Assembly: GCA_003551155.1 (NCBI GenBank)
Contig: PUMA01000130.1
Location: 1 to 52,075, forward strand
Source of the DNA: Desulfonatronospira sp.
Lineage (GTDB): Bacteria; Desulfobacterota; Desulfovibrionia; Desulfovibrionales; Desulfonatronovibrionaceae
Length of the DNA stretch: 52,075 bases
Reading direction: 5' to 3'
The notes beneath the pieces are model-generated. The model had not been told where the DNA came from. It worked only from the letters and a program-made list of their open reading frames with translations, and searched no databases. Made by a program: the position numbers and the translations under genes. This document shows positions 16,387 through 34,817 of this stretch, in pieces. Position 1 is the stretch's first letter; the number at the start of each line of letters is the position of its first letter.

Positions 16387-17640
16387 TCAAGCCAAAGGTG
16401 ATGTGCATTTTGTTCGTAAGTCCTGGATCATTTGGTTCAAATCCGGATCAACAGCCAGTTTTTCATTGATTTTTTGTATATTATATACGGCAGTGCTGTG
16501 GTGTCTGCAGCCAAAAACGGCACCTATCCGGGGATAAGACCACTTAAGCTCCAGTTTGCACAGATACATGGCTACCTTCCTGGCCATGGCCAGATTTCTT
16601 TTTTTTGATTTGCTCATGAGCTCTGCGGCAGAGATTTGAAAGGATGAGCACACCAGGCTGATGATCCGGTTGAAGTAATTCTGGTCCAGGGAATGAATCT
16701 GTACATGGTCATGGTATATTTTTCTTGAGGATAATTTTTGTTCATTGTCTGCACCGGATATATGGTCCAGCATAATCTTGTTCAGGTATTTATTGATAAA
16801 AAAGATATTATCACAAATATTAGCCATTGTAAAAATATCATTTTTTGAAATACTTATCTGATTTTGCTTGCAAAAAAATTTTATAAATTTGATTTTCAGC
16901 TCCAGGTCAGGATGGGGCAGAATTAATATCAAACCCCTGAATATCATTTTATGGATTGTTTCTGGCAAAATTTTTAGATCATTCCGGCAACCTTTGAACG
17001 TTGTAACTATCTGTTTATTTTCCCTGATAAATATTTCCATGATTTTATTTATGAAATTCAACAAATGAATATTATTTACTATCTCATGAATGTCCTCGAT
17101 AATTAATATTTCTGATAATTTTATATTAATGATTATATCATTTTCTTTATTTGTTTCTGTCAAATTTTTAAATTCAAGTATACTTGAAATGAATGATCTA
17201 CCTTTGTACGAGTTTATTATAGATTTAACCAGGTGAGTTTTTCCTGTTGATTTGTTTCCTACAAGATTTATTGGATTGTATTGAATTTTTTTGTTTTCAG
17301 ATATTTGTCTGCATAATTCAGCTGCTGTTTTATTATCTTTATTTACTATAAAATTTTTAAACAAAAAATTATTGTAATAATCATAATTGATATGTGATTT
17401 GCTTATTTTATAATTATTAATATCTTTGTCTTTTATTTTATATTTTATTTTCTTGGTCGTCTGGTTTTGAATAATTTTGTCTATTCTATTGCTGTATAAA
17501 TCAAATAAATATTTATGAGGGAATATAACCAGAATATCCTCATCATATTCCATGAGTTCAATCTGTCTGAGGATTTTTTCGGTCTCCTCATCCACAATCC
17601 CTTTTTGAGTCAGTCTTTTTGTCAGTTCAGATAAAGGCAT
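16387..17640 (-). CDS. dnaA: chromosomal replication initiator DnaA, divergent and AT-rich
   Basis: Walker A GNKSTGKTHL, Walker B-like ILIIEDI, domain IV AMYLCKLELKWSYPRIGAVFGCRHHSTAVYNIQKI; adjacent to dnaN and gyrBA. Confidence 0.88.
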   Translation of the reverse strand: MPLSELTKRLTQKGIVDEETEKILRQIELMEYDEDILVIFPHKYLFDLYSNRIDKIIQNQTTKKIKYKIKDKDINNYKISKSHINYDYYNNFLFKNFIVNKDNKTAAELCRQISENKKIQYNPINLVGNKSTGKTHLVKSIINSYKGRSFISSILEFKNLTETNKENDIIINIKLSEILIIEDIHEIVNNIHLLNFINKIMEIFIRENKQIVTTFKGCRNDLKILPETIHKMIFRGLILILPHPDLELKIKFIKFFCKQNQISISKNDIFTMANICDNIFFINKYLNKIMLDHISGADNEQKLSSRKIYHDHVQIHSLDQNYFNRIISLVCSSFQISAAELMSKSKKRNLAMARKVAMYLCKLELKWSYPRIGAVFGCRHHSTAVYNIQKINEKLAVDPDLNQMIQDLRTKCTSPLA

Positions 17641-17800
17641 AACCAGTACTACTCAGGTTACAGGGCTCATGTTCAGGAATAATCGCGGGGGAAGCAGCGA
17701 GTACAGGCATTTTCACAGCTTCTGGCAGTGAATGATTTTCTATGGTTAAAGACCAATGGTTTTTCTTGCAGCTTAAATGGTCTTAAGGTAAAAATTTTTT

Positions 17801-17900
17801 GGCTCTTGGACGTATGCTGTGGATTTATTATTATGGCATTCTGGATAAAGCTTTTTATTTTTAACTGTGTGTAAAATCCACACGTTGCGTCGAGGAACCC
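17801..17900 (-). mobile_element. MITE-like element copy A (100 bp) with ~23 bp imperfect TIRs and an 8-bp target-site duplication AATTTTTT
   Basis: Starts ggctcttggacgtatgctgtgga; reverse complement of the other end is gggttcctcgacgcaacgtgtgga; flanks 17793-17800 and 17901-17908 are both aatttttt; ~90% identical to 32910-33005 in opposite orientation. Confidence 0.8.
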
Positions 17901-18003
17901 AATTTTTTATGGCAAAGGTTATTATGAAAGACAGGTCCACTTTTTGATTAATACTTATGTATACCGGCCCTGGTTAATGCCGGATGACTTTCAAGGTGAA
18001 ATT

Positions 18004-19176
18004 ATGTCCAAATTGTATGAGGTTGTTAAGAGTATAGAAGAGATTAATGATAAAATCAGAAAAAAAAAGGCAGTGGTGCTCAATGCAAGAGACATGGCCA
18101 GTTTAGTCCGGAATAAGGGCAAGGTCAAGGCTGCCCGCGAGGTAGACGTGGTCACCACCGGCACCTTTTCTCCCATGTGTTCCTCGGGCATGATTTTCAA
18201 CTTCGGCCAGAAGCCGCCCATGATCAAGGCTCACAGGTTATGGCTGAACAATGTACCATGTTATGCCGGTCTGGCTGCGGTTGACGCCTATCTGGGAGCA
18301 ACTGAGCCTACTGAAAATGATCCCCTGAACAAGGTATATCCCGGAAGATTTTCATACGGAGGAGGACATGTAATTGAAGATCTTGTCAGCGGCCAGTCAG
18401 TGCATTTAAAGGCTTTAGGCTACGGAACCGATTGTTATCCGCGCAAGCTCCTGGAAAAGGATATTACCCTGGATGAATTGAAGACAGCAGTTCTTTTCAA
18501 TCCGAGGAACGCTTATCAGAACTATAACTGTGCTGTAAATCTGACCAACAAGATCAAGTATACCTACATGGGACCTTTAAGGGCCAATATTGGTAATCTT
18601 AACTTTGCCACTTCAGGCGAATTGAGTCCCTTGTTCAATGATCATTATTTTTTAACCACAGGGTTAGGCACCAGGATATTTCTGGGAGGTGGAACAGGAT
18701 ACGTGATTGGTTCAGGAACACAGCACAACCCAGACCCGCCCCGCAATGAAAGAGGAATACCCAAAATGCCTGCAGGTACATTGATGGTTAAAGGGGATTT
18801 AAAACAGATGAACTCCAGATACCTGCGCGGGGTAAGTTTTGCCGGCTACGGCTGCTCCATTGCTGTTGGTCTGGGTATTCCCATACCTGTACTTAATGAG
18901 GAGATAGCCTGGTATACAGGGGGGGGTGACGCAGACATCCACATGCCGGTTATTGATTATGGTTATGACTATGGAGCAGGAAAAGCCAAAATTCTTGCCT
19001 ATGTCACCTATGAACAACTCCTCTCAGGTACTGTGGAGATAAATAATAAAAAAGTGTCCGCTGTCCCTTTGACGAGTTATTATCTTTCTCTTGAGATTGC
19101 CAATACTTTAAAGGAATGGATAGAATCCGGTGAATTTTTTCTAACCAATGCCCAGGAAAAAATTGAATCCAATTGA
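18004..19176 (+). CDS. homocysteine biosynthesis protein, DUF39 family
   Basis: MSKLYEVVKSIEEINDKIRKKKAVVLNARDMASLVRNKG...EVDVVTTGTFSPMCSSGMIFNFG...GGGTGYVIGSGTQHNP; typical DUF39 features. Confidence 0.85.
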   Translation: MSKLYEVVKSIEEINDKIRKKKAVVLNARDMASLVRNKGKVKAAREVDVVTTGTFSPMCSSGMIFNFGQKPPMIKAHRLWLNNVPCYAGLAAVDAYLGATEPTENDPLNKVYPGRFSYGGGHVIEDLVSGQSVHLKALGYGTDCYPRKLLEKDITLDELKTAVLFNPRNAYQNYNCAVNLTNKIKYTYMGPLRANIGNLNFATSGELSPLFNDHYFLTTGLGTRIFLGGGTGYVIGSGTQHNPDPPRNERGIPKMPAGTLMVKGDLKQMNSRYLRGVSFAGYGCSIAVGLGIPIPVLNEEIAWYTGGGDADIHMPVIDYGYDYGAGKAKILAYVTYEQLLSGTVEINNKKVSAVPLTSYYLSLEIANTLKEWIESGEFFLTNAQEKIESN

Positions 19177-32909: not shown

Positions 32910-33005
32910 CGGCTCCTCGACGCAACGTGTGGATTTTATATACAGTTAAAAATCAAAAGCCTTATCCAGAATGCCATAACAATTCCACAGCATACGTCGA
33001 AGAGC
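32910..33005 (+). mobile_element. MITE-like element copy B (96-97 bp) with ~23 bp imperfect TIRs and an 8-bp target-site duplication CTAATTTT
   Basis: cggctcctcgacgcaacgtgtgga...tccacagcatacgtcgaagagc; flanks 32902-32909 and 33006-33013 are both ctaatttt; ~90% identical to the reverse complement of 17801-17900. Confidence 0.8.
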
Positions 33006-34817
33006 CTAATTTTTGTAGCTGAGGCTGGCAAACTGCTCTATCTTGTCCTTGTAGGCCAGTATCCCCTGAGTCAGTCCCTTGGCCATGTATTCCAGAAAGT
33101 CATCGGATTGCAAAAGCCTCAGATCTCGCTCATTGGTCATGTAGCCGAGCTCAAGAAGTATGGAAGGCATTTTGGCTCCCATGAGCACATAAAACGGGGC
33201 CTGCCTTACACCATTGTCACCAAGATCAGTAAATCTGCCCTGGGCATGGCTTATAGTATTAGTGTGAACCTTCTGGGCCAGATTTCTGGACTCATTGATC
33301 TTGGAGCTGAGCATGAGGTCGGTGAGAATGTACTGCAGATCTGATATTTTCTGAGTGCTGACAGCATTCTCTCTGGCTGCCACCCTTTTGGCGTCCTCGG
33401 TTTTGGCAAAATTGAGATAGTACACTTCAAAGCCGCGGACATTGGGGTTGCGATGGGCATTGGCATGCACTGAAATAAAAAGGTCTGCTTTCTGGGAATT
33501 GGCCATGGCTGTTCTTTCTTCCAGGGGCACAAATACGTCCCTGGTACGGGTATACAGCACATTGAACCCCTGTTGCTCAAGATGGCGGCCCAGAATCCTG
33601 GACATTCGCAGCACCACGTCCTTCTCCTTGATTCCGTTGGATATGGCTCCCGGATCTTTGCCTCCGTGTCCGGGATCGATCATAATTGTTCTGACCTTGA
33701 GCCCCAGCTGCTCCACCAGGCTTCCCGCGGTCAGCTCTCTGCTTCTGGGATCCAGGGTTATTTGAGGCCCTCCCTCAAGGGTCCCCAAAACTTTTCTTTC
33801 CTCGGGGGCATAGACATCCACCACTATACGGAACGGGTTTTCCAGGGCAAAAACCCTGAAGTTATCCAGTTCGTGAATATCCAGAACAACCCTGGATTTG
33901 TCCTGTGTATGCTGAGCAGACCTTATGCGGCTCAAAATGCCGTCAGCCACTTTCTCTTCTCCAGCAATGTCTTCGCCCCGGCGGGTTTTTTCCAGGTCAA
34001 TAAACAGACGGTGTGGTGTGCCCAGGTCAGGATCAGGTTTGAGGAGCTGGTGATGGTAATCAACCTGCGAATCCAGGTCCAGGACCACCCGGGTATATTC
34101 GTCGCTGCTCCAGTGACGGATGGTGACCAGCCGGGCCTCCTCTGGCAAAATCCTGTCCTGATCCAGTGCGGGTTGAGAGCTGATCGCGGGAGGGGTCATT
34201 TCCATTAGTTTCATGGTCCCGCCTGGCTCAGGCTGATGACTGAACCCGGCAGCATCGGCCTCGTCTGTATACTCTTGTGCTGTTGCACCTCCGGCCCGCC
34301 TGATCTTCTCCAGATTTTTCCTGTCCAGCTCCTCTAAAACCTTCTGAGCTTCAGGCTTAAACCGGCTCTGGGAAAAATTATATACAACCCGCAGATATTC
34401 AATATATGCCTGAGCAGCGTCATGGTAATGATTCAGATGGAGGCCGGCTTTTCTGAACTGGGCTTCACCAGCCCGGTCGTGCAATGGGAATTCCCGGACA
34501 ACCCGGGTATAATAATCTTCAGCTTTTTCAAAATCAGCCCGCAGATAGGATCTTTTGCCAAGTTCTTCATGAGTTCGGCCAAGGTAAAAAAGAGCCTCAG
34601 CAGCGCTGGATTCGGAAGTGCTCTCCCTGTATGCCCGTTCAAAATAACCGGCAACCTCAAGCCAGTGCGAACGGTATTGAGCCCGGGACTCGTTTTCCAT
34701 GAGGGAATTGAAGCCCTGCAGGCCTTTGTGGTGGTCTGCATGGACAGCCCCGCCTGACAGAAACCAGACAGCCAGGAAAAAGAACAAAAAGGATAAAAGC
34801 GAATTTTTCTTGGGCAT
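33006..34817 (-). CDS. N-acetylmuramoyl-L-alanine amidase with TPR-like and AMIN-like N-terminal regions
   Basis: IMIDPGHGGKDPGAISNGIKEKDVVLRMSRILGRHLEQQGFNVLYTRTRDVFVPLEERTAMAN...SVHANAHRNPNVRGFEVYYL. Confidence 0.93.
   Translation of the reverse strand: MPKKNSLLSFLFFFLAVWFLSGGAVHADHHKGLQGFNSLMENESRAQYRSHWLEVAGYFERAYRESTSESSAAEALFYLGRTHEELGKRSYLRADFEKAEDYYTRVVREFPLHDRAGEAQFRKAGLHLNHYHDAAQAYIEYLRVVYNFSQSRFKPEAQKVLEELDRKNLEKIRRAGGATAQEYTDEADAAGFSHQPEPGGTMKLMEMTPPAISSQPALDQDRILPEEARLVTIRHWSSDEYTRVVLDLDSQVDYHHQLLKPDPDLGTPHRLFIDLEKTRRGEDIAGEEKVADGILSRIRSAQHTQDKSRVVLDIHELDNFRVFALENPFRIVVDVYAPEERKVLGTLEGGPQITLDPRSRELTAGSLVEQLGLKVRTIMIDPGHGGKDPGAISNGIKEKDVVLRMSRILGRHLEQQGFNVLYTRTRDVFVPLEERTAMANSQKADLFISVHANAHRNPNVRGFEVYYLNFAKTEDAKRVAARENAVSTQKISDLQYILTDLMLSSKINESRNLAQKVHTNTISHAQGRFTDLGDNGVRQAPFYVLMGAKMPSILLELGYMTNERDLRLLQSDDFLEYMAKGLTQGILAYKDKIEQFASLSYKN

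What the first reader, a model, noticed from the sequence alone, without database searches (positions are those of the whole stretch)
17793..17908. MITE-like element inserted upstream of dnaA with an exact 8-bp target-site duplication
17801-17900 has imperfect ~23-bp terminal inverted repeats: GGCTCTTGGACGTATGCTGTGGA at one end and GGGTTCCTCGACGCAACGTGTGGA as the reverse complement of the other. It is flanked on both sides by exactly AATTTTTT (17793-17800, 17901-17908). It lies about 160 bp upstream of dnaA and about 100 bp upstream of the DUF39 gene, so it could affect the dnaA promoter or an origin. Its centre carries TTATCCAGA (8/9 to the E. coli DnaA box). TIR termini (GGCTCTT...) plus 8-bp AT-rich duplications resemble ISL3-family insertion sequences as I recall them; that family link is inference.
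Basis: partly seen in the sequence, partly recalled or inferred. Interest (0 to 1): 0.85.

Follow-up and report, generated by a model that had tools for sequence, protein, structure and literature searches.

The report
ISL3-type miniature transposon beside dnaA
A 99-bp non-coding miniature transposon, moved by an ISL3-family transposase, sits between dnaA and the neighbouring homocysteine-biosynthesis gene; it is one of dozens of copies in this sulfate reducer's genome and is a real but ordinary insertion.

Summary
The genome, a fragmented assembly of a Desulfonatronospira-type sulfate reducer, holds 43 BLAST matches and about 60 copies of each terminal repeat, against 0 for a control pattern. 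Complete sibling copies are 76-332 bp and lie between genes. Of 35 copies with both ends, 11 have an exact 8-bp target duplication (0.02 expected by chance); 3 more have exact 9-bp repeats.

Two congeners have an empty site: anchor-to-gene distance is 127/128 bp, versus 244 bp here and 136 bp once the insert and one repeat are subtracted. Complete ISL3 elements (about 1.34-1.37 kb) in the same order have the same ends and 8-bp duplications, and the own genome has an ISL3 transposase start directly behind such an end. A Microcystis MITE with the same outer 9 bases, 8-bp duplications and an ISL3 partner is published (PMC11448079).

No evidence supports an effect on dnaA or an origin. The "DnaA box" is a stock part of the repeat (20 of 35 copies). 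New member of a known kind, low interest.

The parts
17801..17899 (+). MITE, short class (99 bp; 100 bp if the C at 17900 is counted); no ORF of note, no transposase
   Evidence: 43 BLAST matches in the own genome; aligned copies
17801..17826 (+). left terminal inverted repeat, GGCTCTTGGACGTATGCTGTGGATTT (family consensus GGCTCTTCGACGTWTGCTGTGGAATT)
   Evidence: 64 matches in the own genome with up to 3 mismatches, control 0
17874..17899 (-). right terminal inverted repeat, read inwards GGTTCCTCGACGCAACGTGTGGATTT
   Evidence: 60 matches in the own genome with up to 3 mismatches, control 0
17793..17800 (.). target-site duplication, left copy AATTTTTT (9-bp reading: 17792-17800 AAATTTTTT)
17901..17908 (.). 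target-site duplication, right copy AATTTTTT (9-bp reading: 17900-17908 CAATTTTTT)
17843..17851 (-). TTATCCAGA, the near-DnaA-box; part of the repeat itself
   Evidence: in 20 of 35 complete copies
32911..33006 (-). second copy of the same MITE in the window (96 bp), flanks TAATTTTC / TAATTTTT (7 of 8 identical), between convergent genes
   Evidence: 89-90% identical; absent from two congeners
16387..17640 (-). dnaA (divergent), left neighbour
   Evidence: PF08299 and PF00308 above cut-off
18004..19176 (+). HcyBio / DUF39 gene, right neighbour
   Evidence: PF01837, E 6e-150

Best explanation
It is a non-autonomous MITE of the ISL3 type. An ISL3-family DDE transposase encoded elsewhere recognises its roughly 23-26 bp ends (GGCTCTTCGACG...TGTGGA), moves the element and inserts it at AT-rich intergenic sites; repair of a staggered cut leaves an 8-bp (sometimes 9-bp) duplication. 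This copy entered the dnaA-HcyBio intergenic region after the lineage separated from its closest sequenced congeners, and is probably neutral there. Shown: the repeat family, its ends, the duplications, the empty site, and ISL3 elements with the same ends. Inferred: mobilisation in trans by the own ISL3 transposase, and neutrality.
For: 43 BLAST matches and 60-64 matches of each end in the own genome, control 0. 11 of 35 complete copies with exact 8-bp flanking repeats against 0.02 expected. Empty site in G003 and G004 here and at the second window copy. Complete ISL3 elements of the same order with the same ends and exact 8-bp duplications (L238, L240, L241, L242). Own genome: ISL3 transposase N-terminus on C190 (63% identical) directly behind the end GGTTCTTCGACGTTGACTGTGGAATT. 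All 35 complete copies lie outside called ORFs (crude). Published parallel in Microcystis (PMC11448079).
Against: Transposition was not observed. The own genome's ISL3 element is cut by a contig end, so its second end and intactness are unknown. The MITE interior does not derive recognisably from the ISL3 elements compared; only the ends match. The congener alignment is of moderate quality (anchor distance 136 bp against 127/128 bp, not identical).
Confidence: 0.95

Rival explanations
1. A conserved origin or regulatory element of dnaA (DnaA boxes in a hairpin) that merely resembles a transposon.
For: Position next to dnaA; TTATCCAGA and TTTTACACA (17868-17876, minus strand) inside it.
Against: Dozens of copies elsewhere; absent at the orthologous site in G003 and G004; the box-like word is shared by 20 of 35 copies; promoter and terminator matches at chance level.
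Confidence: 0.01
2. The element is a MITE, but this copy has been co-opted: it changes dnaA or HcyBio expression, or binds DnaA.
For: It lies 160 bp from the dnaA start and about 100 bp from the HcyBio ATG and folds into a long hairpin.
Against: No promoter or terminator signal above chance; the dnaA-proximal 160 bp is left intact; no expression data.
Confidence: 0.06
3. A one-off internal deletion remnant of a full ISL3 element rather than a member of an amplified MITE family.
For: Its ends match ISL3 elements.
Against: The interior is shared with other 94-107 bp copies at other sites, so the short form itself multiplied.
Confidence: 0.02

Closest known systems
187-bp MITE of Microcystis aeruginosa PCC 7806, attributed to ISL3-family transposases (PMC11448079)
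   Same: Outer 9 bases GGCTCTTCG, imperfect inverted repeats, 8-nt duplications, stem-loop, tens of copies, ISL3 elements with matching ends in the same genome
   Different: Other phylum, 187 bp with only 9-nt repeats described; sequence not held here, so interiors were not compared
ISL3-related MITE of Methanosarcina acetivorans, partner ISMac21 (PMC3852290)
   Same: Short non-autonomous element (179 bp) with an ISL3 partner
   Different: Archaeal host, few copies listed; sequence not compared here
ISL3-family insertion sequences of the same order (loci L229, L238-L242)
   Same: Same ends (GGYTCTTCGACGNNNNNTGTGGAATT) and 8-bp duplications
   Different: About 1.34-1.37 kb with a transposase gene; the MITE has none and shares only the ends
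259-bp MITE of Oceanospirillum (L116, L139) and 194-214 bp MITEs of a Rhodospirillales assembly (L124, L137, L145, L157)
   Same: Same type of ends and exact 8-bp duplications; Oceanospirillum also has an ISL3 transposase behind the same end
   Different: Interiors differ

Membership tests
MITE | Short (under about 500 bp), non-coding, with terminal inverted repeats | tested here: met
   99 bp, siblings 76-332 bp, no transposase; repeats seen directly
MITE | Present in many dispersed copies | tested here: met
MITE | Flanked by target-site duplications of fixed length | tested here: met
   8 bp exact in 11 of 35 copies against 0.02 expected; 9 bp in 3. Window copy exact at 8 bp if the element is 100 bp, 8 of 9 if it is 99 bp
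MITE | Occupied and empty sites | tested here: met
   Empty in G003 and G004 here and at 32911-33006
ISL3 family (as the source of the ends) | Terminal repeats matching those of ISL3-family elements | tested here: met
   Complete ISL3 elements in the same order; Oceanospirillum transposase with PF01610, PF13542, PF14690 and NF033550; own contig C190
ISL3 family (as the source of the ends) | 8-bp target duplication | tested here: met
ISL3 family (autonomous element) | Encodes a DDE transposase | tested here: not met
   99 bp without a transposase gene; it is a non-autonomous derivative, not an ISL3 insertion sequence
ISL3 family (as the source of the ends) | Moved in trans by an ISL3 transposase | not testable with these tools
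   Needs a transposition assay
Origin / DnaA-box regulatory element | Conserved at the orthologous locus | tested here: not met
   Absent in G003 and G004

The most novel reading that the evidence does not exclude
The repeat family, many of whose copies carry a near-DnaA-box (TTATCCAGA, 20 of 35; the dnaA-side copy also has TTTTACACA), acts as dispersed DnaA-binding decoys, or the dnaA-side copy tunes dnaA expression.
Probability: 0.03. Interest if true: 0.55.

Novelty: new member of a known kind. Interest (0 to 1): 0.2.

Why it matters
It confirms a recalled family link with data and extends ISL3-type MITEs with GGCTCTTCG ends to soda-lake sulfate reducers, with relatives in Oceanospirillum and Rhodospirillales. 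It helps explain why this assembly is so fragmented, and it warns that a DnaA-box-like word next to dnaA can be transposon sequence. It does not open a large question.

Tried and rejected
Search for the ISL3 partner in the own genome with the Pfam catalytic domain gave only a degenerate 61-aa match on C42, whose nearby end-like match (C42:479) has no partner in the stretch read. The better candidate appeared only with the Oceanospirillum transposase N-terminus (C190). The ISL3 transposase of congener G004 (C80) does not have these ends. The G006 element matches lie on one contig (C347 = PWSL01000198), which may be misbinned, so G006 was not counted as an independent genome with the repeat. Promoter and terminator scan of the intergenic region: chance level. 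Rfam search of the window: nothing. The metagenome collection could not be scanned.

Full report
WHAT IS THERE. 17801-17900 is bounded by GGCTCTTGGACGTATGCTGTGGA and, on the other strand, (G)GGTTCCTCGACGCAACGTGTGGA, with AATTTTTT on both sides. It folds better than all 200 shuffles on either strand (z -4.0 and -3.8). It lies between a divergent dnaA (16387-17640, minus strand) and an HcyBio/DUF39 gene (ATG at 18004, plus strand).

REPEAT FAMILY. The own genome (2.01 Mb in 197 contigs) holds 43 BLAST matches, and 60 right-end and 64 left-end matches with up to 3 mismatches, while the control pattern (read backwards) has none. Thirty-five elements have both ends within 4 mismatches and are 76-332 bp long. 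A short class of about 94-107 bp shares most of the interior with the window copy (about 79-91% identical). Longer classes have an extra centre. Many further copies are cut by contig ends. None of the 35 lies inside a called ORF (crude ORF calling).

TARGET DUPLICATIONS. Pairing the left and right flanks of the 35 complete copies gives 11 exact 8-bp repeats (15 with at most one mismatch), against 0.02 (0.2) when the pairing is shuffled. There are 3 exact 9-bp repeats, and no comparable excess at 4-6 or 10-12 bp. Most copies end ...GARCC, so for the window copy either the element is 100 bp with exact 8-bp repeats, or it is 99 bp with a 9-bp repeat bearing one mismatch.

EMPTY SITE. HcyBio orthologues in the same genus are 82-85% identical. 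In G003 and G004 the block TTTTTCTTGCAGCTT is conserved 127 and 128 bp before the HcyBio ATG. In the window it is 244 bp before it, or 136 bp after subtracting 100 + 8 bp. The flanks align across the junction only when the element is left out, and nothing like it is found there. The second window copy (32911-33006) is likewise absent from both. Both are therefore insertions, not ancestral parts of these loci.

PARTNER TRANSPOSASE. A degenerate end pattern scanned over the species-genome collection hit 60 stretches. In Oceanospirillum beijerinckii the end GGCTCCTCGACGTTAGGTGTGGATT stands about 75 bp before an ISL3 transposase; PF01610, PF13542, PF14690 and NF033550 are all above their cut-offs. 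Searching this transposase through 249 genomes of the window's order found close relatives. Their complete elements of about 1.34-1.37 kb carry GGYTCTTCGACGNNNNNTGTGGAATT-like ends on both sides, several with exact 8-bp duplications (L238, L240, L241, L242; also L237, where the paired ends are 1691 bp apart). In the own genome, contig C190 begins inside such a transposase (63% identical over 60 residues), and the end GGTTCTTCGACGTTGACTGTGGAATT stands directly upstream. The family link is thus tested and met for ends, duplication length and presence of the enzyme. Mobilisation in trans is inferred.

KNOWN KIND. A 187-bp Microcystis MITE with ends GGCTCTTCG, 8-nt duplications, 31-33 copies and an ISL3 partner is published (PMC11448079). 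An ISL3-related MITE is listed for Methanosarcina acetivorans (PMC3852290). MITEs with the same type of ends and exact 8-bp duplications were also seen here in Oceanospirillum (L116, L139) and a Rhodospirillales assembly (L124, L137, L145, L157).

FUNCTION NEAR dnaA. Nothing points to one. Promoter-like matches are at chance level and there are no terminator-like sites. TTATCCAGA is family sequence (20 of 35 copies). The one DnaA-consensus match in the element, TTTTACACA at 17868-17876 on the minus strand, is of a type found in 4 of 35 copies. GC skew changes sign weakly between the 14-16 kb and 16-18 kb bins but gives no clear origin signal. Co-option remains possible but unsupported.

VERDICT. 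The host assignment rests on a congener contig identical in length and element position to a Desulfonatronospira record (PWSL01000198), so the genus name is an inference.

Noticed in passing
window 16387-17640; loci L218-L221; G000:C121:16174: The dnaA next to dnaN is missing in congeners: in G002, G003, G004 and G005 dnaN is followed directly by HcyBio with no trace of DnaA between. The window's DnaA is divergent (TIGR00362 below its cut-off; about 29-33% identical to the DnaA divergent to HcyBio in G007, G009 and G010), and the own genome has a second DnaA on C121.
   Followed up: partly
own genome, many contig ends (e.g. C3, C8, C19, C21, C70, C91, C105, C182): Many contigs end inside copies of this repeat, so the family is probably a main cause of the fragmented assembly.
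   Followed up: partly
L118 (PWSL01000198), L156 (PWJF01000219), L150 (PWRA01000153): MITE-bearing contigs from the same lake series are filed under Desulfonatronospira, Ignavibacteriales and Dehalococcoidia; L118 and L156 share the same flank (tctttatcct). This suggests misbinned contigs of the same population.
   Followed up: no
L043, L035, L032, L046 (own-genome copies of 150-290 bp): Longer forms have a GC-rich centre (CCAGCTCCGGGGTTTTGGCAAAAG...CCAAAACCCCGGAGC) that looks self-complementary and is shared by many copies; its origin is unknown.
   Followed up: no
window 17760-17774; L218, L219: TTTTTCTTGCAGCTT is conserved in two congeners about 128 bp before the HcyBio start; possibly a regulatory site of HcyBio. 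No Rfam match in the window.
   Followed up: no
L026 (G000:C182:11847): The outer flank of this copy reads as MITE interior (attctggataacgctctttg), a possible insertion into or beside another copy.
   Followed up: no
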